IMG/VR virus record: IMGVR_UViG_3300027971_000031
Span: 43,127-107,126 of that record
DNA length: 64,000 bases
From: a virus
Direction: 5' to 3' (one strand)
Made by a program: the position numbers and the translations under genes. Positions 1-63,648 of the stretch are shown in pieces; the first letter of the stretch is position 1; every line of letters begins with the position of its first letter. The notes beneath the pieces were generated by a model. The model was not told where the DNA came from. It ran no database searches and saw only the letters and a list, made by a program, of their open reading frames with translations.

Positions 1-1403
1 CTTGTAAGTATGGTGATAATTTTGTTTATATGAAATTAGACCCTGAAAAAGGTATTGTTGGTTGTCAACAATTACCAACAATTGAAATTGAACGTCATGA
101 GGTTGGTGTAACCGCTAAGATTACTGTGGATATCACACAGGAACAAGACCAGAATAAGAAGGCTCTTCACTTTACTTGGAAAAACAGAAACATGGAATTC
201 CAATCATGGGAGATTGCTCACTTTAGATTATTAGGTGATGACAGAAAACTTCCATATGGTACATCAATGTTAGAAAAAGCAAGACGTATTTGGAAACAGT
301 TATTGTTATCAGAAGATGCCATGTTAATCTATCGTACATCAAGAGCACCTGAAAGAAGAATGTTTAAAGTGTTTGTGGGTAACATGAATGACGATGATGT
401 TGAAGCATACGTAAACCGTGTTGCGAACAAATTTAAAAGAGAACAAATTGTGGACGCTAAAACAGGAAACGTAGATATGAGATTCAACCAAATGGCGGTT
501 GACCAAGATTACTTCATTCCAGTTCGTGACCCTGCAGCACCAGACCCAATTACAACATTACCCGGAGCTACAAACTTATCAGAAATTGCCGATATTGAAT
601 ATATCCAAAAGAAATTATTAACCGCACTTCGTGTTCCTAAGGCATTCTTAGGATTTGAAGAAGTTGTTGGTGATGGTAAAAACTTATCATTACAAGATAT
701 CCGTTTTGCTCGTACAATCAACAGAATTCAAAAAAGTATGATTGCCGAGTTAAATAAAATTGCAATTGTTCACTTATTTTTATTAGGATTTGAAGATGAA
801 TTACAAAACTTTACATTAGGTTTATCTAATCCATCAACACAAGCCGATTTATTAAAAATTGACGTATGGAAAGAAAAAGTGTTATTGTATAAAGATTTGG
901 TTGCCGACCCAGGAAATGGTATTCAACCTACATCATCAACTTGGGCTAAGAAACATATCTTTAACTGGTCTGATGAAGAAATCAGATTGGATTTACAACA
1001 ACAAAGAATTGAAAGAGCTGTTGGAGAGGAACTTAAAGCAACTCCGACAGTTATTACCAAAACAGGATTATTTGATAATATTGATAAGTTATATGGTAAT
1101 CCGTCTGGGTCAACTGCAAATGCTGCGACAACTACAGATAGTGAAAATACGGGTGCCGTACCATCATTTGGAGGAGGAGGTTTTGAAACAGCTCCACCAC
1201 CAGCAGGTGAAGAAGCTCCACCAGCAGGAGGTGAAACAGCACCGCCACCAGCAGGTGAAGTAACACCTGAATCTAAAAGAGCAAATATGAATATTTTATT
1301 AGAAAATAATTTTGCAGAAAAATCAAGATTTTTAAATTTGAATCAAGGTCAAGATTCTTTGGGAGAAATTTCAAAAGAATTGGATAAGTTACTAAATTCG
1401 TAA
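1..1403 (+). CDS. 20: Portal vertex protein, gp20-like (5' end missing)
   Basis: This is the dodecameric portal at the head-tail vertex, through which DNA is packaged and ejected. The reading frame is open from the first bases of the window (frame starting at base 3), so the N-terminus lies outside; the internal ATG at base 30 is not the true start. The visible 466 or so residues include a conserved portal segment beginning YGDNFVYMKLDPE, and T4 gp20 is about 520 residues. The C-terminal 80 residues are a Pro/Gly/Ala-rich linker with repeated APPPAGE units, followed by a short helical end; such a tail is not part of the core portal fold. The order portal, protease, scaffold, capsid matches T4. 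Identification is secure, while the role of the tail is unknown. Confidence 0.92.
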   Translation, partial: CKYGDNFVYMKLDPEKGIVGCQQLPTIEIERHEVGVTAKITVDITQEQDQNKKALHFTWKNRNMEFQSWEIAHFRLLGDDRKLPYGTSMLEKARRIWKQLLLSEDAMLIYRTSRAPERRMFKVFVGNMNDDDVEAYVNRVANKFKREQIVDAKTGNVDMRFNQMAVDQDYFIPVRDPAAPDPITTLPGATNLSEIADIEYIQKKLLTALRVPKAFLGFEEVVGDGKNLSLQDIRFARTINRIQKSMIAELNKIAIVHLFLLGFEDELQNFTLGLSNPSTQADLLKIDVWKEKVLLYKDLVADPGNGIQPTSSTWAKKHIFNWSDEEIRLDLQQQRIERAVGEELKATPTVITKTGLFDNIDKLYGNPSGSTANAATTTDSENTGAVPSFGGGGFETAPPPAGEEAPPAGGETAPPPAGEVTPESKRANMNILLENNFAEKSRFLNLNQGQDSLGEISKELDKLLNS

Positions 1404-1426: not shown

Positions 1427-2128
1427 ATGACTTTCGGACAAATTAAATCCATAATTGAAAACAATTTATTAGAATCCTACAAAAATGAGCAGGAATTTAA
1501 AAAATCGTTAAAAGAGTTCAAACATAATGTTTTGAACAATAAGAATATGTCAAAATTATATTCTTTATACGACCAATTAACTACACCTCAAGGATTAACC
1601 GAAGCCGATGCAAAAGATTTCTTGGAAGAAGGGATTACCTTAATTCAAAAATTGGTGCCAACAATTAAAACACCAAAAACAACATATGAGAATGTTTCAA
1701 ACAAATATTCTGATATTGATTCGTTAGTTTATACTAACAAATTGGATTTAATGGAAAGAGTTCAATCAAAGAAGACTTTGATTAAGACATTGGTTTCACA
1801 AAAACCTGAAACTATAAAGGAATCAATTAATATTCCTTTAAAATCTATGGTTAGTATTGCAAACCAAACAATGAAGGGTTATCTTGATAATCTTGACGAA
1901 TCAACCAAAAAAGAATTCATCCAATTAATGTCTGAAGATACTTCATTACTTCAAGAAAAATTTGAAACTTTAAAAGAAAGTACAATCTCTAAATTGAACA
2001 CTCTATTAGAAAACGAAAATGAATTTGAAATTAAGACAAAATTGTCTGAAACAATTGATAGATTGAAAGTTGAAAAATTTGACCAACTTAATTTCCTTAA
2101 GTTAAAGAACTTAGAAGAATCAATCTAA
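1427..2128 (+). CDS. Helical protein of the head-assembly cluster, unknown function
   Basis: I do not recognise this 233-residue protein by sequence. It is Lys/Glu-rich, predicted almost wholly helical, and has several short runs ending in Glu that resemble prohead-protease sites. It lies between portal and protease, where T4 has its small prohead core proteins gp67 and gp68, so a core or assembly role is a reasonable guess by position only. A TTG fifteen bases upstream would add five residues, but the ATG at 1427 is preferred because it follows the TATTTATA box at ordinary spacing. The 3' end overlaps the convergent bS21 gene by nine bases. Confidence 0.7.
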   Translation: MTFGQIKSIIENNLLESYKNEQEFKKSLKEFKHNVLNNKNMSKLYSLYDQLTTPQGLTEADAKDFLEEGITLIQKLVPTIKTPKTTYENVSNKYSDIDSLVYTNKLDLMERVQSKKTLIKTLVSQKPETIKESINIPLKSMVSIANQTMKGYLDNLDESTKKEFIQLMSEDTSLLQEKFETLKESTISKLNTLLENENEFEIKTKLSETIDRLKVEKFDQLNFLKLKNLEESI

Positions 2129-2308
2129 TTTAGATTTCATCTTTTGAACGTAAGAAGCTTTCAACTTTTGTTGTCTTCTTTCCACCGACTTTTTAACAAA
2201 TTCTTTTTTACCAAACAACATCTGATTTTGTTTAGTTTTAATTACTTTTGACTTTAATGTCTTTAGGGCCCTTTCTATCCCATCTTTTTTTACATCTACT
2301 TTTAACAT
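2120..2308 (-). CDS. rpsU: Phage-encoded ribosomal protein bS21
   Basis: The 62-residue basic protein matches the bS21 family along its whole length: an N-terminal beta strand (MLKVDVKKDG), the helix GIERALKTLKSK, a basic turn, then SVERRQQKLKASYVQKMK, which corresponds to the conserved second and third helices. In the bacterial ribosome bS21 sits on the 30S platform next to the 16S rRNA 3' end, where the anti-Shine-Dalgarno sequence is. In Bacteroidetes ribosomes bS21 is reported to help occlude that sequence. The ATG at 2308 is preferred over a TTG three codons upstream. It is alone on the minus strand inside the head module. Family assignment is confident; a role in redirecting host translation is inference. 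Confidence 0.88.
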   Translation of the reverse strand: MLKVDVKKDGIERALKTLKSKVIKTKQNQMLFGKKEFVKKSVERRQQKLKASYVQKMKSKLD

Positions 2309-2407
2309 ATAATACAAATATCTTAATATTTCAGAAAGTTTTTGACAATAGAACTAATTTTTATTATTATTTTAACAAATAAATAAACATTGACAATATG
2401 AAACTTA

Positions 2408-2884: not shown

Positions 2885-3607
2885 ATGAAACAATTAAGAA
2901 TTTTAGAAGCAAGCGAAGTAGGTCATGGAATATTGGTTGAAACCGACGCAGGTTGGATATCACCAAAAGATATTCGTAACGCCGAGATGTTAAGAGAAGC
3001 AAAGGAGTTAGATTATAGAAATCCTTTTGAATTTTATGCGGTATTACAAAAATACGATACACCAAATAGAAACGGAAGATTTTATCCTGAAAGAATATTA
3101 AAGAGAGAAGCAATAAACTATCAAAAAGCAATTGAAAAGGGTTTATCCACTTCAGAACTTAATCACCCTGAATCGTCTTTAATTGACTTAGATAGGGTAT
3201 CTCACATCATCACAGAGATATGGTGGGATAGAAATATCTTAATGGGTAAACTTAAATTGTTAACATCGCCAGGTTTTCATGAAAGAGGTATTGTTTCCAC
3301 TAAAGGAGACCAAGCAGCTAACTTAATGAGACAAGGTGTTACTATGGGTGTTTCTTCAAGAGGTGTAGGTTCGTTGAAAAAGGTTGGTGAAAGAAATGAA
3401 GTACAAGACGATTTTGAATTAATCTGTTTTGATTTGGTATCATCTCCATCAACACCAGGAGCTTATTTATTTACGAATCCTGATGATAGAGATAAGTACG
3501 AAGAGAACTTGGAAGAAGAAAAAAAATACAAATCACCTGAAAATTCGGAATTTCAAACTAAAGGAGTTGACTTAATGAGAAAATTAACCGATTATTTGGG
3601 AAAATAA
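2885..3607 (+). CDS. 21: Prohead core protease, gp21-like
   Basis: This is the maturation protease that cleaves scaffold, capsid and internal proteins inside the prohead. The 240-residue length fits the family (T4 gp21 is 212). The likely catalytic His is His94 in ELNHPESS, and the likely nucleophile lies in the MGVSSRGVG motif (Ser157/Ser158), typical of this herpesvirus-assemblin-like serine protease family. The N-terminus contains ILE/A at residues 6-9, which matches the (L/I)xE cleavage consensus of T4 gp21 and suggests self-processing. The gene is preceded by a late-promoter-like box and lies upstream of the scaffold and capsid genes, as in T4. Confidence 0.92.
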   Translation: MKQLRILEASEVGHGILVETDAGWISPKDIRNAEMLREAKELDYRNPFEFYAVLQKYDTPNRNGRFYPERILKREAINYQKAIEKGLSTSELNHPESSLIDLDRVSHIITEIWWDRNILMGKLKLLTSPGFHERGIVSTKGDQAANLMRQGVTMGVSSRGVGSLKKVGERNEVQDDFELICFDLVSSPSTPGAYLFTNPDDRDKYEENLEEEKKYKSPENSEFQTKGVDLMRKLTDYLGK

Positions 3608-3977: not shown

Positions 3978-5537
3978 ATGAAAGAAAACAAATTAGTCCA
4001 AGAGGCTCTTATTCAAATGAGACAAGTTGAAGAAGCTATAGCCGAAAATGCAAAAGGAATACTTGCTTCAACTATGAAGGAAGAAATCAACCAATTAGTA
4101 AAAGAATCTCTTTCTGAACAGGATGATGAAAATGAGATTGATTTAGATGCAGACGTTGATACGGATGCTGATAACGATGAAATGGAAATGGATATCGATA
4201 CAGATATGGACATGGACTCTGATGAAGAGGATATGGATATGGATGTTGACATGGATATGGACATGGATTCAGAAGAAAGTCCAATAGATTTAACTGACGC
4301 TTCTGACGAGGAAATCTTGAAAGTATTCAAAGCTATGGGTGAAGATGACGGTATCATTGTAAAAAAAGATGGTGAAAACGTTCATTTAACTGATGATGAT
4401 GCTGACGTAGAATATCTTGTTAAGCTTGGTGAGTCTGAAGAAGACGAATTAATGCAAGAAGACGATATGAATTACGACGAACGAGATGAATCTGTTGATG
4501 ACGTTATTAACGCTATTTTCTCTGATAATGGTGATTCATCAGATGTTGAAGATTTTGACGATGAAGAAGAAGTTGTTTATGAAATAACTTTAGACGATGA
4601 TGATGACGAAATGATGGACGATGATGATGACGAAATGATGGACGATGATGATGACGAAATGATGGATGATTCAGAAATGAGGGAAGAAGATGACATGGAC
4701 GATTTAACAAATGAAACTTACAAACCTAAAGGTGTTGGAATGGGCTCAGGTCCTAAATTTTCTTACAAAGATAAAGCTAAAGGCGGATTTGATGAAAAGA
4801 AAAAAGTAGGTCCTAAATCAGTTGGTACTGGTAAAGCAAAATTTGAATACAAGAAAGGTGAAAATATGGGAGGTAAATCCAAAGTTGTTAAAGCAGAAAC
4901 TAAAGAAGGTGATTACGGAATGAATAGAGGTGATAAATCTAAAACCATGAAAGGTAAAGAAGATTACACTACTAAAAAAGGTATGACAAATTCTAAAGGA
5001 GAAAAAGCTTTTGAAAAAACTGAAACAAAAGAAGCAGCTAGAACATACGGAATGGGTTCCAAAGAAGGTAGAGGATTAAGAAAAGGCATCACAAATAACA
5101 GAAACTATGTTTATGGTAAAAATGGTGTTAAAGTTGAATCAACTACTTCAGAAGAAGTTAGAATGTTGAGAGAAAAGAATGAAGAGTACAGAAAAGCATT
5201 GAATGTGTTTAGAGAAAAACTTAACGAAGTTGCAATCTTTAATTCAAACTTAGCTTACGCAACAAGATTGTTCACAGAGCACTCAACCACTAAAAAAGAA
5301 AAAATAAACATCCTAAGAAGATTCGATGATGTTGAAACTTTAAAAGAATCTAAAAATCTTTATAAGTCAATCAAAGACGAATTAAATACTGTGGATACAA
5401 AATCAATTAACGAATCGGTAGCAACAAAACTAAACAAATCAGTTTCTACAGGTTCATCAACAACTCTAATTGAATCAAAAACTTATGAAAATCCTCAATT
5501 CTTAAGAATGAAGGACTTAATGGGTAAATTAGGTTAA
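3978..5537 (+). CDS. 22: Prohead core scaffold protein, gp22-like
   Basis: This is the major internal scaffold around which the capsid shell assembles. The assignment rests on position directly before the capsid gene, extreme acidity and helical ends. Residues 1-50 are helical with clustered protease-like sites (IAE at 21-23, LSE at 45-47), residues 50-250 are nearly all Asp/Glu/Met, residues 250-390 are Lys/Gly-rich, and residues 400-519 form a helical C-terminus ending in MKDLMGKLG. It is much longer than T4 gp22 (about 270), mainly because of the low-complexity acidic and basic stretches. The LVKESLSEQD motif at 40-49 recurs in a minus-strand accessory protein at 10085-10546. Sequence identity to T4 gp22 is likely too low to see, so the call leans on context. 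Confidence 0.85.
   Translation: MKENKLVQEALIQMRQVEEAIAENAKGILASTMKEEINQLVKESLSEQDDENEIDLDADVDTDADNDEMEMDIDTDMDMDSDEEDMDMDVDMDMDMDSEESPIDLTDASDEEILKVFKAMGEDDGIIVKKDGENVHLTDDDADVEYLVKLGESEEDELMQEDDMNYDERDESVDDVINAIFSDNGDSSDVEDFDDEEEVVYEITLDDDDDEMMDDDDDEMMDDDDDEMMDDSEMREEDDMDDLTNETYKPKGVGMGSGPKFSYKDKAKGGFDEKKKVGPKSVGTGKAKFEYKKGENMGGKSKVVKAETKEGDYGMNRGDKSKTMKGKEDYTTKKGMTNSKGEKAFEKTETKEAARTYGMGSKEGRGLRKGITNNRNYVYGKNGVKVESTTSEEVRMLREKNEEYRKALNVFREKLNEVAIFNSNLAYATRLFTEHSTTKKEKINILRRFDDVETLKESKNLYKSIKDELNTVDTKSINESVATKLNKSVSTGSSTTLIESKTYENPQFLRMKDLMGKLG
4593..4664 (+). repeat. Three tandem 24-base units inside scaffold gene
   Basis: Three identical 24-base units encode DDDDDEMM three times within the acidic domain (about residues 206-229). 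The exact identity at DNA level points to recent tandem duplication by slippage or recombination. Confidence 0.9.
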
Positions 5538-5581: not shown

Positions 5582-7387
5582 ATGGGAGCATTATTAGAAT
5601 CAGGTCTTGTAGGTAACATCGGGTTAAAACACCTTAAAGTTATCAAAGAAGACACAATCAACAAATGGGACAAATTAGGCTTTTTAGAAGGTCTTAAAGG
5701 TCACATGAGAGAAAACGTAGCACAATTATACGAAAACCAAGCATCGTTCTTAATTAACGAAGCATCATCTACATCTGACACAGGTGCATTTGAAACAGTT
5801 GTTTTCCCAATTGTAAGACGTGTATTCTCTAAATTATTAGCGAATGACATCGTATCAGTACAAGCAATGAACTTACCTATCGGTAAATTATTTTACTTTG
5901 TACCTAACATTCAGGCTTACACTGACCCAGCTAACTTAGCTACTACAGGTATTCACTACCCACCTTATGGTTCACCAAACGCTGCGGCTGACCAAACACC
6001 AAACAGTGGTTATGACTACAACAACACTAAAGACCTTTACGATAGATTCTACGAAGGTAACGAACCAGCGTTAGACCCACCAGGTTTATTCGACTATTCT
6101 AAAGGACAATATTCTGCAATCACAGCTCCAGTTGTAACTGTATCTTGGTTAGCAGACCAATTGGTTCCTTCAGCTTACACTACAGACAACTATAGAAAAG
6201 TTCTTATTGTTATGTCAGGTTTTGCAGCTGATGGTGCTGGTAAATTAATCGGTCCTGATGGTCAACCAATGGATAACGAAGCGTTTTTATCTGATTTAAC
6301 TATCTATGGTGTTGCAGGTAATAACTACACTTCAGGAAACACAAGTAACCCTTACTTATTTAGAGTTGTAACTCAAAGATATGGTAAAGGTATTGTACAA
6401 TACGGTAATAACAACTCTACGTTAGTATTCCCTAACAGTAAAACTGATGGTGGTCAATATGACAACATGTGTGATGCTGAAGGTAAAATCTACTTAGAAG
6501 TTGATTTACAAGTACCAGTTTGTATTACTTGTGGTGGTTCTATGGACGGTTACACAGGTTCAACATTCTCTTCAGATACAACAAGTAATGATGCATTTAC
6601 TGCAACTTACAGAATCTACAAAAACTTAGAATTTGAAGATAGAATTGGTGAGGTATCTTTCGACCTTATGTCAGTTACAGTTTCTGTAACAGAAAGAAAA
6701 TTAAGAGCTCAATGGTCTCCAGAAATGGCACAAGACGTTGCAGCATTCCACAACATCGATGCTGAAGCTGAATTAACAGCTTTATTATCTGAGCAAGTTG
6801 CGGCTGAAATCGACCGTGAAATCTTAAGAGATTTACGTAAAGGTGCGGCTTGGAACTTACGTTGGGATTACAATGGTTGGAAACGTCTTGGTTCAAGTGC
6901 AGTTCCTTACACTCAAAAAGACTGGAATCAAACGTTGATTACAGCTATCAACCAAATTTCGGCTCAAATCCACAAATCTACCTTAAGAGGTGGAGCTAAC
7001 TGGATTGTTGTTTCTTCTGAAATCAGTGCTATCTTTGATGACTTGGAGTACTTCCACGTATCAAATGCAGCTCCTGAGCAAGACCAATACAACATGGGTA
7101 TTGAAAGAGTTGGTACATTAGCTGGTCGTTACCAAGTGTATAGAGACCCTTACTTCCCACCAAACCAAGTGTTGTTGGGTCACAAAGGTACGTCTTTACT
7201 TGACACAGGTTATATCTACGCACCGTATGTACCTCTACAATTAACACCTACAATGTACAATCCATTCAACTTTACACCTATCAAAGGTATAATGACGAGA
7301 TACGCTAAGAAAATGGTTAATAACCGTTTCTACGGACGTATCACGGTTGATGGTGTACGTACATTCGATTTAAGAGAATTGAGATAA
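5582..7387 (+). CDS. 23: Major capsid protein, gp23-like
   Basis: This is the main shell protein (601 residues; T4 gp23 is 521). The family's N-terminal layout is visible: a helical propeptide of about 60 residues, then INE/ASSTSDTGAF at 58-70, which fits the (L/I)xE cleavage consensus of the prohead protease and would remove 60 residues. The core follows with FPIVRRVFSKL and a C-terminal MTRYAKKMVNNRFYG segment typical of T4-like capsid proteins. The 44-base leader is almost pure A with few other bases and has no Shine-Dalgarno sequence, which is the kind of leader favoured by Bacteroidetes ribosomes. A terminator follows at once, and no gp24 vertex paralogue is next to it. Confidence 0.95.
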   Translation: MGALLESGLVGNIGLKHLKVIKEDTINKWDKLGFLEGLKGHMRENVAQLYENQASFLINEASSTSDTGAFETVVFPIVRRVFSKLLANDIVSVQAMNLPIGKLFYFVPNIQAYTDPANLATTGIHYPPYGSPNAAADQTPNSGYDYNNTKDLYDRFYEGNEPALDPPGLFDYSKGQYSAITAPVVTVSWLADQLVPSAYTTDNYRKVLIVMSGFAADGAGKLIGPDGQPMDNEAFLSDLTIYGVAGNNYTSGNTSNPYLFRVVTQRYGKGIVQYGNNNSTLVFPNSKTDGGQYDNMCDAEGKIYLEVDLQVPVCITCGGSMDGYTGSTFSSDTTSNDAFTATYRIYKNLEFEDRIGEVSFDLMSVTVSVTERKLRAQWSPEMAQDVAAFHNIDAEAELTALLSEQVAAEIDREILRDLRKGAAWNLRWDYNGWKRLGSSAVPYTQKDWNQTLITAINQISAQIHKSTLRGGANWIVVSSEISAIFDDLEYFHVSNAAPEQDQYNMGIERVGTLAGRYQVYRDPYFPPNQVLLGHKGTSLLDTGYIYAPYVPLQLTPTMYNPFNFTPIKGIMTRYAKKMVNNRFYGRITVDGVRTFDLRELR

Positions 7388-8626: not shown

Positions 8627-9319
8627 ATGAAAAGAAATAGAATTAGTGAAGCCACAGGTTCGGGAAGTGCGGGAAACTTCAAAGTACCAATAGTATTATC
8701 TCCACAACCGTGGACAGAAGACCAAGTTGCACCATTTACTAATCCTGTTTATAGTTATAATAATGCAGAGTTGGCATATGAAGAAGCTGACGGTGATTTT
8801 AAAGAAACACCTGAAGAACGAGCTCGAATAGAAAAAAGGACAGATAGAATTGCTCAAGTGGATAGATACCTAAAAAGTTTCTATACTGGTCAAAATGATG
8901 AAGATGGGAGTAATGTTGCGGATATTGAAGACCCTGAGAAAATCATACAACAAGCGGTTGGACCACTTAAAGAAGATTTAGCTGTTTGGTTTGGAACAAA
9001 GAAAAAACCAAAAGGTTCGTCACAACCAAAAGGTCCTTGGGTTAATATTTGTAGAAAAAAAGAAGGTGGTGGTCACCCACCATGTGGAAGACCTGAATCT
9101 TCAGATAAAGGATATCCAAAATGTAGAGCCGCAGGGGTTGCATCTAAAATGAGTGATTCTGAAAAGAAATCTGCGTGTGCTCAAAAAAGAAAAGAAGAGA
9201 AAAAAGACCCAAAAGTTGGTACAGGTAATAAACCAACTATGGTATCTTACAAACCAAAAAATGAATCATTAAAGGACGTAATAAAAAATGTTCTTAATGA
9301 ATATAAAACATCTATTTGA
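8627..9319 (+). CDS. Probable capsid-packaged protein with DUF5872-like domain
   Basis: The 230-residue product begins MKRNRISEATG, in which ISE/A at 6-9 fits the prohead-protease consensus and resembles the short N-terminal capsid-targeting peptides of T4 internal proteins. An acidic helical region follows. Residues about 140-200 form a small Cys/Lys-rich domain with GPWVNICRKK, HPPCGRPES, GYPKCRAAG and a basic tail, resembling the DUF5872-type domain also seen in viral proteins. The last 20 residues (NESLKDVIKNVLNEY) form an amphipathic helix like those in other tagged proteins here. The basic Cys domain could bind nucleic acid. Packaging is inferred from the tag only. Confidence 0.65.
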   Translation: MKRNRISEATGSGSAGNFKVPIVLSPQPWTEDQVAPFTNPVYSYNNAELAYEEADGDFKETPEERARIEKRTDRIAQVDRYLKSFYTGQNDEDGSNVADIEDPEKIIQQAVGPLKEDLAVWFGTKKKPKGSSQPKGPWVNICRKKEGGGHPPCGRPESSDKGYPKCRAAGVASKMSDSEKKSACAQKRKEEKKDPKVGTGNKPTMVSYKPKNESLKDVIKNVLNEYKTSI

Positions 9320-9614
9320 TAACACTATCATTAAATGATGTTGTATCTATTTTTTTAGGTTGAATTAATTTAGTTTCTTTTTTTGGTATTAAAACATTAA
9401 TTGGTTTTGGACGTTCAATAAAAAGAGTATCGTGTATAATTTCTTTTTCAAAGGTTATTGGCGTTTCAATAACTTCAATTTTCTCTTTCTTAATTGGGTT
9501 ATTATTATAAATTGTTTTATAAATGTTAATTGAAACTGATGTAATTAACGCACATACTATTAATATAATTAACAGCCCAAAATAAAACGTATATTTGAAA
9601 GAATTGTTTTTCAT
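9312..9614 (-). CDS. Single-pass membrane protein, unknown
   Basis: The 100-residue protein has one strong hydrophobic helix at about residues 10-30 after a short basic N-terminus, then a hydrophilic Lys/Pro/Ile-rich tail, which is the layout of an inner-membrane-anchored protein with a periplasmic tail. An inner spanin would have this topology, but I see no coiled coil or partner lipoprotein, so that is only one option. The start overlaps the stop of the upstream gene (TAATG), indicating translational coupling. The 3' end overlaps the convergent gene by eight bases. Confidence 0.65.
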   Translation of the reverse strand: MKNNSFKYTFYFGLLIILIVCALITSVSINIYKTIYNNNPIKKEKIEVIETPITFEKEIIHDTLFIERPKPINVLIPKKETKLIQPKKIDTTSFNDSVIK

Positions 9615-10015
9615 TAGATGCTATGTAATATATTTTGAAGTGAATGTTTAATGTTTGACGTAATTTCTTTTTCAAAAATTTCTCTACGTTTTTCTACCTC
9701 ATTATCAAACATAGATACAAGATTTTCCCAACAATTTTTTTCTAAAAAAACCGTATAAGAATATACGTGGTTAATTACCTTAACGTTGTTACCCTCTAAA
9801 ATAACAAATATTTGATGTTCTTCATTTCTAATGTAACGTTTATTAGAAATTGGGGTTAATAATAAAATGGTTTCTTCTTTATCGATAAGTTTTTTACAAA
9901 TAGAAATACAATCTCTCTCATATTCCGATTTTTGCATAGGTGGAGTTGATAATCTAACTAAAGAAATGTACCATTTTTGAATTGCGCGTTTTAAGTTGTG
10001 TGGTGAAAGATTCAT
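9614..10015 (-). CDS. Hypothetical protein
   Basis: The 133-residue product is of mixed alpha/beta character with a helical C-terminus (EVEKRREIFEKEITSNIKHSL). No known motif is visible. It is coupled to the downstream membrane protein through a TAATG overlap, so the two probably act together. Upstream is a sequence resembling a Bacteroidetes housekeeping promoter rather than the late box, which suggests early or middle expression. Confidence 0.6.
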   Translation of the reverse strand: MNLSPHNLKRAIQKWYISLVRLSTPPMQKSEYERDCISICKKLIDKEETILLLTPISNKRYIRNEEHQIFVILEGNNVKVINHVYSYTVFLEKNCWENLVSMFDNEVEKRREIFEKEITSNIKHSLQNILHSI

Positions 10016-10036
10016 ATGTGTATTTTTATTTGACTA

Positions 10037-10070
10037 CAAAAGTAAACAAAAACTTTAAATAAAAAAACAA
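10037..10070 (-). promoter_or_regulatory. Possible host-type (Bacteroidetes) promoter
   Basis: On the minus strand TACTTTTG (10044-10037) matches the Bacteroidetes -7 consensus TAnnTTTG exactly, with a TTG about 23 bases upstream where the -33 element is expected. In AT-rich DNA such matches also occur by chance. Confidence 0.35.
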
Positions 10071-10084
10071 CTGATATAAAAAAA

Positions 10085-10546
10085 TTAACAATAAGCTCCA
10101 GAGCACTGTCTTTTACCGTCCAATCCTTTGATTTTACCCTTACATACTTGAACGGCATATCCGTTAGCGTATGCTGATGGATAAACAGTATATTTTGATT
10201 TGGCGGCAGATTTACCTCTTGCACAAAGTGGAGTTCCTGTTTTTTTTCTACCTTCATTCATTTCTTCAAAATCAACATATTGTGATTCTTTTTCCATTTC
10301 ATTTTTTAAGAAATCAAAAACTTGGTCAATATTTGTTTTGGCTTCGGATATATGGTCATCTGCCCAATCATGTCCATTTTGAAGTATTTGGTCAACTGTT
10401 GATGGGTCCATCTCCATAATCATTTCAAGTTGTCTTTTCATCTGTTTTAAATTTGAAAAGAACATATAATTCGTTTCGTCTTGTTCTGAAAGAACTTTTT
10501 TAACAATTCTGTTTAAGTCTGATTCGGTTAATTTTACTGTTTTCAT
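10085..10546 (-). CDS. LTES-tagged protein with Cys-containing basic C-terminal domain
   Basis: The N-terminus KLTESDLNRIVKKVLSEQD (residues 5-23) contains two prohead-protease-like sites, LTE/S (6-9) and LSE/Q (19-22), on an amphipathic helix. Its second half, IVKKVLSEQD, is nearly the same as LVKESLSEQD at residues 40-49 of the scaffold. The acidic middle is helical. The C-terminal 50 residues contain TPLCARGKSAAK, VYPSAYANGYAVQVCKG and a last CSGAYC, a small conserved basic Cys-bearing domain that I have seen in hypothetical proteins of marine T4-like phages. The gene starts one base after the structural gene at 10548, so it is late and cotranscribed. I infer a packaged internal protein; the domain's activity is unknown. 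Confidence 0.7.
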   Translation of the reverse strand: MKTVKLTESDLNRIVKKVLSEQDETNYMFFSNLKQMKRQLEMIMEMDPSTVDQILQNGHDWADDHISEAKTNIDQVFDFLKNEMEKESQYVDFEEMNEGRKKTGTPLCARGKSAAKSKYTVYPSAYANGYAVQVCKGKIKGLDGKRQCSGAYC

Positions 10547-20603: not shown

Positions 20604-21764
20604 TTAATATTTTAATAGGATATCACAAACTCTATCAATATCTTCTTTTGTCATTTTATCATGATTTGGAACATATATTCCTCTTTCATCTATAATTGTA
20701 CATTTAGGTAATTTATTTTCTCCGTATAATTTTTTGTAAAATGGTTGAGTTCCCATTGAACCTGAAATTAATGGTCGACATACAATGTTGTTCTCATTCA
20801 ATTCTTTTATTAGTTTTTCTTTATCCTCAATAGTTTTGGTAATAAACGGAATTGCAAAATTTGAAGTATAACTATCGTCAAAAGTTCTTGGAAACCATGT
20901 TTTACTTTCTAACTTAGATTTGTAATATAAGAAATTCTCATAACGATTATTAATCATTCCATCTACTTTATCTAATTGTTTGATTCCAATTTGGGCTTGT
21001 AAATCTGTACTTCTTAAATTAAAACCTGGAACGTAAAATGTGTATAATGCCGAAAAATCATTTACATCCCATTCTTTTCTTAATTCTTGTTGTTTTTCCA
21101 AAGATAAATCTCTATCCCATCCGTGACTTCTAAGTTGCAACAAAGTGTTGTAAATCTCTTCATCGTTAGTCGAAATAACCCCACCCTCAATTGTTGACAT
21201 TGTGTGTCCAAAATAAGTTGAGAATGATGACATCAATCCAAAGTTACCAAGTTTGGTCCCCTTAAATTTAGTTCCCTGTGACTCACAATTATCTTCAAGT
21301 AAGATTACATCATACTTTTTACATAACCGAACAATAGAATCCATATCTGGAGATAATCCTAATACAGAAACCAAAAATAATACGGACGGTTGTTCGGTTT
21401 TAAAGACTTCTTCAAGATGTGTTAAATCTACCGATAAGTTATCCAAATTACAATCAATTAATAATGGTTTCATATCAAACTGAAGTACGGGTGCCAAGTC
21501 TGTTGCCCAACATAATGTGGGAACACAAACTTTATTGTTTTTCATTTTGTTAAGAATTTTTAATGCATACAACATAAGTAAATTTGCTGACGACCCTGAA
21601 TTGACAAATACGGAATATTTTGTCCCTAACCACTGAGACCATTTATTTTCAAACTCAATTGTTTTAGACCCTTTAGTTAATTTTGGATAAGTTTTTAACC
21701 AGTCAATTAAATTATCGATGTCTTGATTATTGATTGTATCTTGAATTAAATCAATTCTTTTCAT
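20604..21764 (-). CDS. ColD-like PLP-dependent sugar 3-dehydratase
   Basis: The 386-residue protein belongs to the DegT/DnrJ/EryC1 fold (NSGSSANL cofactor phosphate motif at 55-62, LLEDNCESQG with Asp158 for the pyridine nitrogen). Where aminotransferases have the Schiff-base Lys, this one has His187, in FGHTMSTIEGG. That Lys-to-His change is diagnostic of 3-dehydratases such as ColD (GDP-4-keto-6-deoxymannose 3-dehydratase, of very similar length), which makes the precursor of GDP-colitose, and of the ascarylose enzyme E1, which also needs an iron-sulphur cluster. The adjacent fucose-synthase-like gene would supply the next step. Substrate is inferred. Confidence 0.82.
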   Translation of the reverse strand: MKRIDLIQDTINNQDIDNLIDWLKTYPKLTKGSKTIEFENKWSQWLGTKYSVFVNSGSSANLLMLYALKILNKMKNNKVCVPTLCWATDLAPVLQFDMKPLLIDCNLDNLSVDLTHLEEVFKTEQPSVLFLVSVLGLSPDMDSIVRLCKKYDVILLEDNCESQGTKFKGTKLGNFGLMSSFSTYFGHTMSTIEGGVISTNDEEIYNTLLQLRSHGWDRDLSLEKQQELRKEWDVNDFSALYTFYVPGFNLRSTDLQAQIGIKQLDKVDGMINNRYENFLYYKSKLESKTWFPRTFDDSYTSNFAIPFITKTIEDKEKLIKELNENNIVCRPLISGSMGTQPFYKKLYGENKLPKCTIIDERGIYVPNHDKMTKEDIDRVCDILLKY

Positions 21765-22684
21765 TTTCTAAGAGTATTATAATTGTTAATGAACCATTCA
21801 ATCGTTTCAATAATTCCTTGCTCTAAATTAATGTATTGGTAATCTTTAGGAATATCTGATTTTGCGGGTTTTCTAAACTGACCTTTTGGTTTTGTCTCAT
21901 CAAATATTAAGTTATCATCTTGGATATTAAATTTTTTGGCAACAATTTTAACAATATCCATAACTGAGTGTTCGTTATCATTTACTGCCATAAAGGGAAC
22001 TTCACTATTCCAATTATCAATTGCCCATAAAATAACTTTTGCCAAATCTTTTGAATGGATAAATTGTCTTAATGGACTTCCGTCTCCCCAAACTACAAAG
22101 TCTTCATTATTTTGTTTACAGTTATACGCTCTGTGAATAATACCAGGAATCATATGACTGTGCTCAGGATGAAAATTATCGTGTGGACCATAAACATTTG
22201 TTGGTACAATTGTAATCCAATTGTTACCTGTTAATTGTCTAATAATTTTTGTTTGATAACCTGACAATCTTTTTGCGTAAGAATAACCATGATTAGATGG
22301 GTGTGGCGGTGCAATGTCAATTTGGTCGGCAGTTAATGGGTATGTGATATTAGAGTCGGGGAAAATACAAGTAGATGATAAATTAACAAAATTCTTAACT
22401 TTGTTATTAAATGCCGAGTTAATTACATTATTATTTATCTTATAGTTTTCAACAAAGAAAGTTTCATTATTGTCTGAGTTTGCTTGAACTCCACCAACCA
22501 TTGCAGCACAATGTATAATTGTGTCCACACCTGAGTTTTTTACATGATGTGTGATATAATCATTAGTTGATTTTTCGTCAGTTAAATCCACATCTTTTCT
22601 TGTGTGGTATATGTGACCTTCACCTAATAATTCTTTTAATGCCGTGCCAAGTAATCCGTTTGAACCTGTAACTAATACTTTCAT
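21761..22684 (-). CDS. GDP-L-fucose synthase / ColC-like epimerase-reductase
   Basis: This short-chain dehydrogenase-type enzyme of 307 residues has the NAD(P)-binding GSNGLLG at 7-13, HCAAMVGGVQAN, SSTCIFP (102-108) and the YSYAK catalytic pair Tyr134/Lys138. The pattern is that of GDP-fucose synthase, which epimerises C3 and C5 and reduces C4 of GDP-4-keto-6-deoxymannose. ColC, the colitose enzyme, is a close relative acting on the 3-deoxy intermediate. Four-base ATGA overlaps on both sides tie it to the dehydratase and the fucosyltransferase-like gene. No GDP-mannose 4,6-dehydratase is in the window, so the precursor may come from the host or from elsewhere in the genome. Confidence 0.85.
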   Translation of the reverse strand: MKVLVTGSNGLLGTALKELLGEGHIYHTRKDVDLTDEKSTNDYITHHVKNSGVDTIIHCAAMVGGVQANSDNNETFFVENYKINNNVINSAFNNKVKNFVNLSSTCIFPDSNITYPLTADQIDIAPPHPSNHGYSYAKRLSGYQTKIIRQLTGNNWITIVPTNVYGPHDNFHPEHSHMIPGIIHRAYNCKQNNEDFVVWGDGSPLRQFIHSKDLAKVILWAIDNWNSEVPFMAVNDNEHSVMDIVKIVAKKFNIQDDNLIFDETKPKGQFRKPAKSDIPKDYQYINLEQGIIETIEWFINNYNTLRK

Positions 22685-23463
22685 AATTTAATCCATTTAT
22701 CACAATATAAGTCATTAGTGTTTAAATGTGAATTGGAAACGCCAAACCATTTTGACGGAATTATTACTTGTTTATTTTCATTGTTATTTAACCAAGCCCC
22801 CCACCAACTAAATGTTGAATTTGCAATTATGTTATTTTTACACATAGACATTAAATACAAATCTTCATAATCTTTATTATCGGATATAAATGTTTTGTTA
22901 ATTAAAAACCCAAAGTTTTCTTTACACCATTCAATATCATCGGAAAATACTAAGAAATGTTTTTCTTCACCAATAATTTGAATAGCCTCCTTATAATATT
23001 CAATTGATTGGGTTGGGTGGTAATTTGGAAGACCCAAATAATCACCTCTTCTAATATGAATTGAACACGTATCTTGATTTATAATATCTCCATATTTTTC
23101 AGACAAATATGTTTTTGTTGTATTGTCAATTTCAAAAAGTTCTAATATTTTATCCCTATGTTCTATAAAGTATTTTTCACTTTGAAAGTGTCCAACTAAT
23201 TTAATATTTCCATTAATTTTTGGTATTGGAGTGTAGTGAAATCCACCTTCACCCATATTTTTTAAATTGGTTAAACTATTTGAAAATTTAATATTTCTAA
23301 ATATATTATTAGTATAATATGTATATGGTTTATGAGGGATTTGCATCTCTGTAATATCACAAATTATTTCTTTATTATCTCTAAGAGCAATACTATGTGA
23401 TGTTGCGATTTGGTACATCATGTTCCCTAATCCCCCCATTAATCTTGTTGAAACAATATCCAT
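22681..23463 (-). CDS. GT11 alpha-1,2-fucosyltransferase-like
   Basis: The family signature HIRRGD is at residues 136-141, the N-terminal GGLGNMMYQIA at 10-20 and STFSWWGAW at 216-224, all hallmarks of GT11. It is expected to use a GDP-linked 6-deoxyhexose, which is the product of the two genes downstream, so it may transfer fucose or colitose. The length of 260 residues is typical. The start is the first gene of the deoxysugar trio on this strand. Confidence 0.9.
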   Translation of the reverse strand: MDIVSTRLMGGLGNMMYQIATSHSIALRDNKEIICDITEMQIPHKPYTYYTNNIFRNIKFSNSLTNLKNMGEGGFHYTPIPKINGNIKLVGHFQSEKYFIEHRDKILELFEIDNTTKTYLSEKYGDIINQDTCSIHIRRGDYLGLPNYHPTQSIEYYKEAIQIIGEEKHFLVFSDDIEWCKENFGFLINKTFISDNKDYEDLYLMSMCKNNIIANSTFSWWGAWLNNNENKQVIIPSKWFGVSNSHLNTNDLYCDKWIKL

Positions 23464-23550
23464 TATTTAATATTTTTTTTTAAGACAGATTTTTATTTTA
23501 GTTGAAATATAAGAAATCTTACTTATAATTCAATTATAAATTTGAATAAT

Positions 23551-24195
23551 ATGGCACAAGGGGTACATAAAATAACTGAGGATTTTGAAAGGAGTTTGTG
23601 TGATTATACAGGAGCACCTTACGCAATTGCATTAGACAACATGAGTAACGCAATATTTTTGGCGTTATATTATGAAAAGAACATAAAACAAAGTTTAACA
23701 TCAGATAAGGTAGATTGTCCGTCAAAGACATATCCATCAGTTCCGTGTGAAATTATTCATGCGGGGTTAAAAGTTAATTTTACGCCTGTTGAGGGAGAAA
23801 CAATTAAAGGAGCCTACCAACTATCTCCAAGTAATGTTTGGGATTCAGCTTTAAGATTTACTGCCGACATGTATATACCAAAGTCTCATATGTGTCTTTC
23901 ATTTACAGGTCCATATAAAACTTTAAAATTAAGTAAAGGTGGGGCAATTTTAACTGATGACCATAAAGCAATGTTATGGTTTAAACGTGCCAGATTTAGC
24001 GGTAGAAGAGAGTGTTCGTATCACGATGATAATTTTGATATGTTGGGTTGGAATTTTTACATGATGCCAGAACTTTCGGCCAGAGGATTGTTGATGATGT
24101 CACAGTTTTACGATTTGAAAGGGAATAAAAAACACATCGATGATTTGGAATTACCTTATCCTGATTTGTCCAAATTTGAAATTTATAAAAAATGA
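23551..24195 (+). CDS. Compact DegT-family aminotransferase-like protein
   Basis: The product has only about 214 residues against roughly 370 for normal family members, yet keeps the key elements in order: ALDNMSNAIFLALY in place of the cofactor phosphate loop, WDSALRF with an Asp for the pyridine nitrogen, and GPYKTLKLSKGG with the Lys where the Schiff base forms. The C-terminal small domain is largely absent. It is followed by a NeuD-like acetyltransferase with a four-base overlap, a pairing typical of amino-sugar synthesis. The ATG at 23551 is chosen over a TTG three codons earlier. It may be active as an obligate oligomer, or be a minimal or decayed enzyme. Confidence 0.72.
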   Translation: MAQGVHKITEDFERSLCDYTGAPYAIALDNMSNAIFLALYYEKNIKQSLTSDKVDCPSKTYPSVPCEIIHAGLKVNFTPVEGETIKGAYQLSPSNVWDSALRFTADMYIPKSHMCLSFTGPYKTLKLSKGGAILTDDHKAMLWFKRARFSGRRECSYHDDNFDMLGWNFYMMPELSARGLLMMSQFYDLKGNKKHIDDLELPYPDLSKFEIYKK

Positions 24196-24791
24196 AAAAA
24201 GGAATTATAGGTGCTGGAGGTTTTGGTAGAGAAGTTTATTGGAGCTTATCTTTAATAGAACGAGTTAATACCAAATTTTTTGTTGATGACAAATACTGGG
24301 ATGACACAAATGATTTAATTTTACCAATTTCTAAATTTAACCCAAGTGAATATAAAATAGTTGTTGCAATTGGAGACCCAAGGGATAGGTTTGATATGGT
24401 AGAAAGATTACCAAAAGAAACCAAATATTTTACACATATACATCCTAGTGTACAAATACTTGGAGATGACGTTGAGATTAATGAGGGAAGTATTATATGC
24501 GCCGGAACTATAATTACAACAAATGTTAAAATAGGGAAACATGCTCATTTAAATCTTCAAACCACTATTGGTCATGATTGTGAAATTGGTGATTATTTTA
24601 CCACAGCCCCTGGTGCTAAAATATCAGGTAATTGTAAGATATATGATTGTGTTTATGTAGGTACAAATGCGTCAATTAAAGAAAAAATATCAATACATAG
24701 TTTAACTACTATAGGTTCAAATGCTACGGTAGTTAAAAATATTGAAGAACCAGGAATTTATGTTGGAGTTCCTTCCAAAAAAATAAAATAA
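24192..24791 (+). CDS. NeuD/PglD-like sugar O/N-acyltransferase
   Basis: The 199-residue protein has an N-terminal small Rossmann-like domain starting GIIGAGGFGREVYW and a C-terminal left-handed beta helix of hexapeptide repeats (residues 95-185, such as IGKHAHLNLQTTIGHDCEIG), ending with IYVGVPSKKIK. This is the architecture of NeuD and PglD, which acetylate sialic acid or UDP-4-amino sugars. The catalytic His is probably in TTIGHDC. With the overlapping aminotransferase-like gene it forms a two-gene plus-strand unit inserted in the minus-strand block. Confidence 0.88.
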   Translation: MKKGIIGAGGFGREVYWSLSLIERVNTKFFVDDKYWDDTNDLILPISKFNPSEYKIVVAIGDPRDRFDMVERLPKETKYFTHIHPSVQILGDDVEINEGSIICAGTIITTNVKIGKHAHLNLQTTIGHDCEIGDYFTTAPGAKISGNCKIYDCVYVGTNASIKEKISIHSLTTIGSNATVVKNIEEPGIYVGVPSKKIK

Positions 24792-24796
24792 ACGTT

Positions 24797-25600
24797 TTAA
24801 TGATTTTTAACAAAATCAATTATTTTGTCTCTTAACGACTCTCTAAATTTGGCGTATTTAAAACTTCTTTCATAATTTTCTTGAATATAGGGTAACATTT
24901 GATGATAAGTCTCAGTTGTAATTGAATTACAAACATTAGTAATATCATCTAAGTTTTTAACTATAAACATCCCTCTAGTGTCAAAGAAATCTCCAATATT
25001 TGGACACCCCAAATAAATTGGAATTGTTTTAGTTTGAAAACAATCAATTAATTTTTCAGTAAACCAATTATATGAAGACATATTTTCAATCGCAATGTGA
25101 AACTGAGAGTAAAACAATTCATTTTTTATTTCACTATCTTGAATATATCTATCAATTAATGGTGTTCCTGTATAAGGTTCATTTTTACTGTTAAATAAAT
25201 GTATTGGTATTGTACTCACCATTTCATTTATTTTAGGTAATCCTTGTCTCATAATTTGATATTGTGTTATTGTTTTACCTCCAACAATTGATGTTATGCA
25301 ATATTCTTTTTCTTTTGTTAAATCAAAATCTAAAATCCAAGAAGTTCCAAACGGAAACAATTTAGCATTTGGACAAGTATCTAATACTTCTTTATGCCAA
25401 GTTAAAATTAAGTCAAATTCTTTGTACCTATTAATTACATGATTTCTTAACCTTGAAACTTCATTTGGCTCAACACACCAAAGAATTCTTATACCTTCTT
25501 TAGGTTTTAACGGGAATCTATCAACATATAATTCACACGGTTTATCTGTTTGAATATCAATTTTAATGTCCCAAATTGAAAATTTTTTTACTGAATACAT
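24797..25600 (-). CDS. GT10-like (alpha-1,3/4-fucosyltransferase) protein
   Basis: The C-terminal half contains FHIAIENMSSYNWFTEKL, matching the GT10 pattern of an ENS-like motif followed by a TEK motif, then TIPIYLGCPNIGDFF, which matches the family's VPVYxG segment. The 267-residue length fits bacterial members. A GDP-deoxyhexose donor is expected. The gene converges on the acetyltransferase gene with five bases between the stops. Confidence 0.82.
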   Translation of the reverse strand: MYSVKKFSIWDIKIDIQTDKPCELYVDRFPLKPKEGIRILWCVEPNEVSRLRNHVINRYKEFDLILTWHKEVLDTCPNAKLFPFGTSWILDFDLTKEKEYCITSIVGGKTITQYQIMRQGLPKINEMVSTIPIHLFNSKNEPYTGTPLIDRYIQDSEIKNELFYSQFHIAIENMSSYNWFTEKLIDCFQTKTIPIYLGCPNIGDFFDTRGMFIVKNLDDITNVCNSITTETYHQMLPYIQENYERSFKYAKFRESLRDKIIDFVKNH

Positions 25601-25635
25601 ATTTTATATTTATACGGGACTATTTGACGTACCAA

Positions 25636-26253: not shown

Positions 26254-26280
26254 TTTAAATGTTATTATTTTTTATTATGT

Positions 26281-26985: not shown

Positions 26986-26989
26986 TTAA

Positions 26990-27412: not shown

Positions 27413-27413
27413 A

Positions 27414-57296: not shown

Positions 57297-57809
57297 ATGG
57301 AAAAATTAGTTCCGATAACGAGATTAGGTAAATTCTTTGGTGGTGAAGATTTTGACCTTGATATTGGTATGGGTCAAGAATGGTTGGAGGGTGATATGAA
57401 CTTTACCATTGTGTTATATCGTATTGACCGTTATAAGACAAAGAAGGATGACGTTTATGGTGAAGTCATGGAAGACGGTATTCAATTCATGGCACCTGTT
57501 GAATTAAAAGGATTGGTTCAAGTTATGGCACCAACCAATAAATTCTATGGTAATTCCAAAGTTGAAATCCAAGAGCCAGGAAATATGAAATTCTCAATTT
57601 ATCAAAAACAACTTGAAGATTTGAATGTTGAAATATTCATGGGTGATTATATTGGATATTATGAAACCGAGGACCGAGTTAGATATTATTCTGTTAGTGA
57701 TGACGGATACGTTAGGTCCGACAATAAACACACATATGGTGGGTACAAACCATTTTATAGAACAATTACCGCCACATGGGTAAGTGAAAACGAATTTAGA
57801 GGATTATAA
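57297..57809 (+). CDS. 14: Probable neck protein, gp14-like
   Basis: The 170-residue protein has the arrangement of the T4 gp14 core: VLYRIDRYKTKKDDVYGEVM, a beta region, FSIYQKQLEDLNVEIFMGDYIGYYETEDRVRYYSV and PFYRTITATW, which parallel gp14's sequence of structural segments (a PxEY-like strand, a GDLIYFPMD-like strand and a DPFYQLG-like strand). It is shorter than T4 gp14 (256). Position before the gp15-like gene supports the call. gp14 binds gp13 at the portal exit. Sequence similarity is weak, so the call is tentative. Confidence 0.55.
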   Translation: MEKLVPITRLGKFFGGEDFDLDIGMGQEWLEGDMNFTIVLYRIDRYKTKKDDVYGEVMEDGIQFMAPVELKGLVQVMAPTNKFYGNSKVEIQEPGNMKFSIYQKQLEDLNVEIFMGDYIGYYETEDRVRYYSVSDDGYVRSDNKHTYGGYKPFYRTITATWVSENEFRGL

Positions 57810-58222
57810 TGAGAGTCGTTATTACAGAATCACAATTTGATAATTTATTCTTGGGTAAGAAGGTAATGGTCTATTACAACTTACACAAACAGACATTTTC
57901 TGTGACATACGACAGTAAAGTTATTATGCACGCTGACTATGTTAAGTTAGGTGATGTTGAATTCAGAGTTAGAAAAGGTGGTAAAGAACGAGTTCGTTCT
58001 GAAAAATCAAAAAACGTTCACGCATTTGTGATTGGAAGATTATTGGATTATTGTGAATATCCTTGTGATGACATTCCAAATCCACCGTCTGACATGATTG
58101 TGACATACAATCCTTATAGACACGATTCATTTGTTTATAAACAAAGTGAAGAACCCGTTTATAGAGCCGAAGAAGTTGATATGATTAATTCACAAAATAA
58201 ACTATTTGTAGTAAAAGAATAA
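57809..58222 (+). CDS. ITES-tagged small protein in the neck cluster
   Basis: The 137-residue product begins MRVVITESQFDNLF, with ITE/S at residues 5-8 resembling the prohead-protease tags of other proteins here. The body reads YYNLHKQTFSVTYDSKVIMHADYVKL, then a basic KGGKERVRSEKSKNVHAF segment, like a conserved small beta domain of T4-like phages without known role. It shares one base with the gp14-like stop and abuts the gp15-like start. It may be a packaged protein; alternatively the ITES start is an ordinary helix. Confidence 0.65.
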   Translation: MRVVITESQFDNLFLGKKVMVYYNLHKQTFSVTYDSKVIMHADYVKLGDVEFRVRKGGKERVRSEKSKNVHAFVIGRLLDYCEYPCDDIPNPPSDMIVTYNPYRHDSFVYKQSEEPVYRAEEVDMINSQNKLFVVKE

Positions 58223-62817: not shown

Positions 62818-63648
62818 ATGAAAAGACAACTTAGAGAGGGATTTAAGGGTGAGGGAACACCAGATATGAAATATTATGCGTTTGATTGGGATGACAACAT
62901 TGTTCATATGCCAACAAAGATAATGTTAAAAACTGAAGATGGTGATGAAGTTGGTATGAGTACAGATGATTTTGCAGAATACAGAAGTAAAATTGGAAAA
63001 GAAGATTTTGACTATAATGGTGATACCATTGTTGGATTTTCTGAAGAACCATATAGAAACTTTAGAACCGCAGGTGACAAAGATTTTTTGGTTGATGCTA
63101 TGAGAGCAAAACTTGGACCGGCATTTAATGATTTTAGAGAAGCAATTAATAACGGGTCAATATTTTCAATTATTACTGCGAGAGGCCACAACCCCAACAC
63201 TTTAAAACAAGCCGTTTACAATTATATTATTGACGGGTTTCATGGAATAGATAAAGACCAACTCGTTAAGAACCTTAAAAAATACAGGTCGTTTTTTGAC
63301 GAGGAAGATATGACGGACGATGAATTAATCAAATCGTATTTGGACCTTAACAAATATCATCCAGTGTCTTTTGACGATGAAGAAGGTGCTGCCAACCCTG
63401 AAGAAGCAAAAGTTCGTGCTATGGAAGAGTTTGTTTCTTATATTAAGAAAATGGCGAAAAAGTTAAATAAGAATGCCTTTATTAAAAATGATGTATCTAA
63501 TAACTTTGTTCCAGAGCAACCTAGTATTGGATTTTCAGATGATGATATTAGAAATGTAGAAGTAATGAGTAAGCATTTTAAAAATAAACCAAATAATATA
63601 GTTAAGACTTATTCTACTGCTGGAGGCGTTAAAAAGGAATATAAGTAG
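62818..63648 (+). CDS. HAD-superfamily protein with N-terminal LRE/G tag
   Basis: The 276-residue protein has HAD motif I FDWDDNIV with Asp23 and Asp25, motif II in IITARGHN (Thr120), and a likely motif IV GFSDDDIRN near residue 240, so the phosphatase core seems complete, with a large helical cap between. The N-terminus MKRQLREGFKGEG contains LRE/G at 5-8 in the style of the prohead-protease tags seen elsewhere in this genome. It sits between sheath and tube genes, an unusual place for an enzyme. A TTG three codons upstream is in frame, but the ATG at 62818 gives the tag its typical position. The substrate may be a nucleotide or nucleic-acid end, which is inference. Confidence 0.78.
   Translation: MKRQLREGFKGEGTPDMKYYAFDWDDNIVHMPTKIMLKTEDGDEVGMSTDDFAEYRSKIGKEDFDYNGDTIVGFSEEPYRNFRTAGDKDFLVDAMRAKLGPAFNDFREAINNGSIFSIITARGHNPNTLKQAVYNYIIDGFHGIDKDQLVKNLKKYRSFFDEEDMTDDELIKSYLDLNKYHPVSFDDEEGAANPEEAKVRAMEEFVSYIKKMAKKLNKNAFIKNDVSNNFVPEQPSIGFSDDDIRNVEVMSKHFKNKPNNIVKTYSTAGGVKKEYK

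What the first reader, a model, noticed from the sequence alone, without database searches (positions are those of the whole stretch)
8627..10546. A family of short N-terminal tags matching the prohead-protease consensus on unrelated proteins
Several otherwise unrelated proteins begin with Met-Lys/Arg, a few residues, then (L/I)xE followed by S, A or G: ISE/A at 8627, LTE/S and LSE/Q at 10085-10546, ITE/S at 57809, LRE/G at 62818, and ILE/A in the protease itself. The helix IVKKVLSEQD in the 10085-10546 protein shares 7 of 10 residues with LVKESLSEQD in the scaffold. In T4, gp21 cleaves after (L/I)xE, and internal proteins reach the capsid through a short N-terminal targeting peptide ending at such a site. 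I infer that these tags form a general capsid-targeting and cleavage signal, so that a set of effector proteins is packaged and injected with the DNA.
Basis: partly seen in the sequence, partly recalled or inferred. Interest (0 to 1): 0.85.

Follow-up and report, generated by a model that had tools for sequence, protein, structure and literature searches.

The report
Shared cargo tags on phage proteins
Many unrelated proteins of T4-like viruses that infect Bacteroidota bacteria begin with the same roughly 22-residue helical tag, ending exactly where the virus's head protease should cut, so it very probably loads them into the virus head much as a shorter signal does in phage T4.

Summary
The window is part of a T4-like phage with portal, S77 prohead protease, scaffold and gp23 capsid. 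The protein at 10085-10546 starts with MKTVKLTESDLNRIVKKVLSE|Q. In IMG/VR this tag (consensus MKKIIRLTESDLTRIVKRVIKE|Q) sits at residue 1 of about 115 unrelated protein families. Single genomes carry up to 16 copies; three control phages and three control contigs carry none. Column information stays high through a final [ILV]-x-E and drops to background within two residues. That is the T4 gp21 cleavage rule. Tags also occur between domains of polyproteins and at C-termini. At least six other N-terminal tag types also end in [ILV]xE. Supported sites: 10085 (LSE|Q), 8627 (ISE|A), 62818 (LRE|G), capsid (INE|A), core protein (LLE|S). Not supported: LTE/S in 10085 (the helix cap) and ITE/S at 57809 (not conserved). 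ILE/A in the protease is lineage-limited. Resemblance of tag to scaffold helix is in register but statistically weak. Cleavage, packaging and injection are inferred; I found no virion data for this phage. I call it a new, much larger variant of the T4 capsid-targeting sequence.

The parts
10085..10546 (-). Tagged cargo protein, 153 aa: tag, helical domain (27-88), low-confidence linker, Cys-rich C-terminal domain (GTPLCARG...)
   Evidence: homologues in at least 586 viral contig stretches; alignment of 46; AlphaFold model
10484..10546 (-). Class-1 tag MKTVKLTESDLNRIVKKVLSE, predicted cut after E21
   Evidence: E21 invariant in 46 homologues; same tag on about 115 unrelated families
8627..8650 (+). 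Short N-terminal signal MKRNRISE, predicted cut ISE|AT
   Evidence: [ILV]xE-[ATVSI]T in 90 of 109 relatives; longer helix before the same junction in L288, L294, L299
9260..9316 (+). C-terminal tag-like helix NESLKDVIKNVLNEYKTSI of the 8627 protein
   Evidence: 20 of 91 relatives match a strict pattern, 8 have a full tag plus a second domain instead
1427..1474 (+). N-terminal helix MTFGQIKSIIENNLLE|S of the core protein (gp67/68 position)
   Evidence: helix conserved in relatives
2885..3607 (+). Prohead protease (Peptidase_S77, gp21-like); begins MKQLRILE/A
   Evidence: PF03420 E=1.7e-22; N-terminal site present in 48 of 83 relatives only
4071..4118 (+). Scaffold helix TMKEEINQLVKESLSE|Q, candidate docking or mimicked segment
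   Evidence: best tag-matrix site in most of 84 scaffolds; 26 of 2000 shuffles as good; not significant by hhalign
3978..5537 (+). Acidic scaffold-like protein (gp22 position)
   Evidence: position between protease and capsid; composition; no Pfam match
5582..7387 (+). Major capsid protein gp23; predicted cut INE|A after residue 60
   Evidence: PF07068 E=3.7e-71; site in 44 of 44 relatives
62818..62838 (+). Short N-terminal signal MKRQLRE|G
   Evidence: [LI]xE|G kept in all relatives listed
57809..58222 (+). ITESQF-type N-terminus; no cut site supported
   Evidence: E lost in 14 of about 80 relatives; body matches Phage_L5_gp82
30..1403 (+). Portal protein (gp20-like) of the same head module
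   Evidence: PF07230 E=3.6e-65

Best explanation
The tag is a capsid-targeting propeptide. A capped amphipathic helix at the N-terminus of a cargo protein (or between domains, or at the C-terminus) docks the cargo on the growing scaffold core of the T4-like prohead. The gp21-type protease then cuts after the final [ILV]-x-E and frees the mature cargo inside the head. The cargo stays with the packaged DNA and is probably delivered into the next host cell. Shown: the shared tag on unrelated proteins, its sharp end at [ILV]xE, its use inside polyproteins, and an S77 protease in most of the same large genomes. Inferred: docking to the scaffold, the cut itself, packaging and injection.
For: About 115 unrelated families share the tag. 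Information ends at hydrophobic-x-E, with the middle residue variable as in L/I-X-E (rule: PMC9026906). Up to 16 copies per genome, none in controls. Unbiased N-terminal clustering finds further tag types, all ending in [ILV]xE. N-terminal [ILV]xE is enriched even without the main tag. Tags lie between domains and at C-termini. 15 of 17 large tagged records have Peptidase_S77. The same cargo domains are untagged and start at the domain in podovirus-like phages. T4 internal proteins show the same logic: MKTYQEFIAE|A.
Against: No virion or cleavage data. Tag-scaffold resemblance is not significant by profile comparison. Two large tagged records show neither S77 nor Gp23, and the S77 association against random contigs is only p=0.09. 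Four ORFs with the gut-type tag lie on contigs binned as Bacteroidales chromosomes, two or three of them beside IS1595 transposases. P1' is mostly Q, N, E, D or S, unlike the E|A of T4 internal proteins.
Confidence: 0.8

Rival explanations
1. The tag is a binding or localisation helix for another destination (host membrane, nucleoid or a phage replication compartment) and is not cleaved. The final E would only mark the end of the helix.
For: The helix is amphipathic and basic; the cargo is diverse; some tagged ORFs lie on bacterial contigs.
Against: An end of helix does not need hydrophobic-x-E with a free middle residue. Several unrelated tag types share only that end. The same site type is conserved in the capsid protein and 8627 changes its helix but keeps the junction. 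A full tag sits between domains of one chain.
Confidence: 0.1
2. The short motifs chosen by the reader (LTE/S, ITE/S, ILE/A and so on) are themselves the family and the cut sites.
For: The strings are present; ISE|AT at 8627 and LRE|G at 62818 are conserved.
Against: LTE lies at the start of the conserved helix and is dispensable. ITE/S is not conserved. ILE/A or LLE/A is found in 48 of 83 proteases.
Confidence: 0.05
3. The shared 5' ends are a nucleic-acid or translation-start signal, or recent recombination scars, with no protein function.
For: Nearly all tags start at the start codon; pairs of tags within one record are 78% identical in DNA.
Against: Synonymous codons at invariant residues vary; tags also occur internally and at C-termini; the reversed pattern control is nearly empty.
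Confidence: 0.02

Closest known systems
T4 capsid targeting sequence (CTS) of internal proteins IPI-III and Alt
   Same: Short N-terminal peptide shared by otherwise unrelated proteins, ending in a gp21-type L/I-X-E site; S77 protease and gp22/gp23-like head; C-terminal cutting known for Alt (PMC9026906, PMC3012670).
   Different: No sequence match (no tag in T4); 16-22 residues instead of 10; about 115 carrier families and up to 16 per genome; several tag types; polyprotein cargo; P1' mostly Q/N/E/D/S.
Propeptides of giant phages phiKZ and SPN3US cut by gp21-like proteases
   Same: N-terminal propeptides removed after a short motif ending in E; two of them only 20 and 24 residues long (PMC10052503).
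   Different: There most propeptides are long (111-254 residues) and no shared tag is described in the passages read.
Polyvalent proteins (PMC5512222)
   Same: Multidomain proteins of phages and plasmids deployed in conflicts with the host.
   Different: From its abstract: proteins of 2-15 domains; here many small, separately tagged proteins. Not tested further.

Membership tests
T4-type capsid targeting sequence | Genome encodes a gp21-type (S77) protease and gp23-type capsid | tested here: met
   PF03420 and PF07068 in the window; S77 in 15 of 17 large tagged records
T4-type capsid targeting sequence | Common N-terminal peptide on otherwise unrelated proteins | tested here: met
   about 115 families
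T4-type capsid targeting sequence | Peptide ends in L/I-X-E | tested here: met
   102 of 115 have E, 101 of those with I/L/V two before
T4-type capsid targeting sequence | Sequence homology to T4 CTS MKTYQEFIAEA | tested here: not met
   no tag match in T4; T4 signals read. So this is not filed as the same sequence family, only as working like it
T4-type capsid targeting sequence | Tag resembles a segment of the scaffold protein, as IPIII and gp22 share IAE|A | tested here: inconclusive
   in register, 26 of 2000 shuffles as good, not significant by hhalign
T4-type capsid targeting sequence | Peptide is removed in the prohead | not testable with these tools
   needs virion mass spectrometry or protease assay
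T4-type capsid targeting sequence | Peptide is enough to bring a foreign protein into the head | not testable with these tools
   needs tag-GFP experiment; natural domain swaps behind the tag are consistent
Polyvalent proteins | Very large multidomain proteins | not tested
   most tagged proteins are 80-500 aa

The most novel reading that the evidence does not exclude
T4-like Bacteroidota phages run a general protein-loading code: several interchangeable tag types, all closed by one protease site, placed on many cargo proteins per genome and strung together in self-separating polyproteins, with the tag imitating the scaffold helix of its own lineage so that tag and scaffold coevolve.
Probability: 0.35. 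Interest if true: 0.87.

Novelty: new variant of a known kind. Interest (0 to 1): 0.73.

Why it matters
If right, a sequence search alone can list the proteins such viruses carry in their heads and probably inject first, a set now almost wholly 'hypothetical': at most 13 of 113 scanned tagged families had a Pfam match. It turns a T4 curiosity of a few proteins into a broad, testable delivery system in lake, marine and gut viruses.

Tried and rejected
tblastn of the 23-residue tag against named phages found nothing; a short query there is insensitive, so this is no evidence of absence. Full-text search for LTESDL/LTESEL found no phage paper. Profile-profile comparison of tag with scaffold was not significant, and a capsid decoy scored as well; in that run the set labelled scaf_gut also held most marine scaffolds, so it is not a lineage test. 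The lineage covariation of tag and scaffold (gut: extra helical turns and an ILxE end in both) rests on four scaffolds and is only suggestive. Terminases starting MKIENLTEEELKD (L112, L199 and others) match the DNA pattern but look like chance; at least one, plus L106, is still counted among the 115 families. The tag patterns select columns 1-10, so only columns from 11 on are independent evidence. A first C-terminal regex gave 0 of 92 because its spacing was wrong; corrected, where it still undercounts variants such as NESLRDTITTILNE. Virion proteomes of cyanophages could not be tied to our domains.

Full report
Setting. The window is bases 43127-107126 of a 107 kb IMG/VR virus record. It carries a T4-like head module: portal (Portal_T4), a core protein in the gp67/gp68 position (1427-2128), a Peptidase_S77 prohead protease (2885-3607), an acidic scaffold-like protein (3978-5537) and a gp23 capsid protein (5582-7387). 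A ribosomal protein S21 gene lies inside the module on the other strand (2120-2317, PF01165). This is the arrangement reported for lake phages predicted to infect Bacteroidetes (PMC9723584).

What was claimed. I checked each against relatives. In the 10085 protein E21 of LSE|Q is invariant in 46 homologues, while LTE is absent from the divergent homologues L288 and L291. LTESDL looks like a classical helix N-cap (T-x-x-D capping box flanked by L and L; general knowledge), and the AlphaFold model starts a helix at residue 8 and ends it at 20. The 8627 site ISE|AT is conserved in 90 of 109 relatives. In divergent relatives the same junction is preceded by a longer helix, e.g. MNIRNIVKKILRE|ATSDS in L294 or MIERTIKNILKE|ATSTS in L288, which links the short and long signals. 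The 62818 site [LI]xE|G is kept in every relative listed while surrounding residues change. The 57809 site is lost in 14 of about 80 relatives. The protease site is found in 48 of 83 relatives. The capsid site INE|A or equivalent is in 44 of 44.

The tag family. The complemented control pattern gave 23 in the whole collection, with no tag among 231 ORFs fetched. After removing redundancy and clustering the part behind the tag, 123 families remained, of which 115 score well against a tag matrix. In 20 phage records the core pattern matched 51 times, the reversed control once. With the 23-residue consensus, single records hold up to 16 copies; T4, S-BM3, Mel-JY01 and three control contigs hold none. 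The window's own record has one.

Where the tag ends. Selection fixed columns 1-10 only. Columns 11-16 were free, yet stay at 2.0-2.8 bits except column 15 (1.1 bits). Columns 14-15-16 read hydrophobic - any - E, then information falls to 1.1 and then about 0.3 or less. Of 115 families 102 have E there, and 101 of those have I, L or V two residues before. This is the L/I-X-E rule of T4 gp21 (PMC9026906). Most of the 13 exceptions are a gut/rumen variant with one extra helical turn, such as LTESDLHRIINRSVKRILNE, which again ends in [IL]xE. P1' favours Q, N, E, D, S, unlike the E|A of T4 internal proteins.

Independent support. Clustering N-termini of 716 unrelated families without any motif gave 4148 pairs scoring 40 or more, against 1 for residues 51-76. 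Besides the main tag it showed, among others, ITEEExxRILGMHxSAxxxxFLxE|Q, MNLQENIRRILRE|, MNLQENIxRIKxMMGxxxE|, RHIQEANLxLExxxLxE| and MKYLLGYKxGxVxSE|Q. An ITESQYxxLxxE type appears by regex. These end in [ILV]xE in most members. In 500 families without the main tag, [ILV]xE[QSAGN] within residues 3-33 occurs in 116, against 66 and 60 in internal windows; [ILV]xEQ in 40 against 13 and 9 (p about 5e-5 and 2e-4 for the first comparisons).

Tags inside proteins. L003 and L004 encode tag-domain-tag-domain, the second domain being the 10085 protein. Eight 8627-type proteins carry a full internal tag (NES-MKKTIR-LTExxL... in several) followed by an unrelated domain; many others end in a C-terminal tag-like helix such as NESLKDVIKNVLNEYKTSI. 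L225 and L258 share one second domain behind different first domains. T4 Alt is also cut at its C-terminus (PMC9026906). Synonymous codons at invariant tag residues vary. These facts argue against a start-codon or DNA-level signal.

Comparative contrast. Relatives of both cargo domains occur as small separate basic proteins beginning at the domain itself, without a tag, in P-SCSP2 (Autographiviridae, within the head gene cluster), HTVC023P and HTVC106P. In T4-like cyanophage S-BM3 they are fused in one chain with LxE-type motifs between domains.

Protease link. Of 17 tagged records of 120 kb or more, 15 have Peptidase_S77 above cut-off. Of three control records of that size, one has; p=0.09, so the link is consistent but not proven. 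The two exceptions also lack a Gp23 match and may be fragments or divergent.

Scaffold link. The best match to the tag matrix in most of 84 scaffolds is one site, TMKEEINQLVKESLSE|Q. 26 of 2000 shuffles of the window scaffold do as well. Profile-profile comparison aligns the same residues in register but is not significant. In T4 the IPII/IPIII signal and gp22 both end in IAE|A. I therefore treat scaffold mimicry as a hypothesis.

Mechanism, with steps marked. Shared peptide on unrelated proteins: shown. End at a gp21-type motif: shown. Cutting there by the S77 protease: inferred, strong. Docking on the scaffold core: inferred, moderate. Packaging: inferred, strong by analogy with T4 CTS fusions (PMC3012670). 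Injection: inferred, moderate. Cargo is mostly unknown; Pfam finds NUDIX, LysM, peptidoglycan-binding, abhydrolase/UPF0227, annexin-like and DUF1573 domains once each.

Novelty. Capsid targeting as such is known from T4. The tag sequence, the number of carriers, the coexistence of several tag types and the polyprotein use were not found in the literature searched, which is limited to open-licence papers. I rate it a new variant of a known kind.

Noticed in passing
window 2120-2317 (-): A phage ribosomal protein S21 gene sits inside the head module on the opposite strand, as in the Bacteroidetes phage clades of PMC9723584.
   Followed up: partly
L474:1278-2675, L476:4294-5321, L477:1385-2336: On contigs binned as Bacteroidales chromosomes, gut-type tag sequences lie directly beside IS1595 transposase genes, as if tagged small genes travel as transposon passengers; unexplained.
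   Followed up: partly
L282 (LR756508, 484 kb huge phage) 463-2784: Five neighbouring small proteins share another N-terminal helix of the type KLRKIIREELxRLLxE, a possible further tag class in an unrelated lineage.
   Followed up: no
L281:1884-3184 (Flavobacterium phage immuto_2-6A): Four proteins of this isolate share FDLKKFLVENKLTxNSxILKE at the N-terminus, one of them annotated cob(I)alamin adenosyltransferase.
   Followed up: partly
L280:1-2488 and L470:1498-2150: The Cys-rich domains of the window's 8627 and 10085 proteins occur as neighbouring small basic proteins in podovirus-like phages, in P-SCSP2 between scaffold and capsid genes.
   Followed up: partly
window 20604-32787: A long run of genes that read like sugar-nucleotide and glycosyltransferase enzymes lies in the middle of the structural region; judged by reading only.
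   Followed up: no
tags, position after the final E: The residue after the predicted cut is most often Gln (39 of 102), so mature cargo N-termini could cyclise to pyroglutamate; not explained.
   Followed up: no
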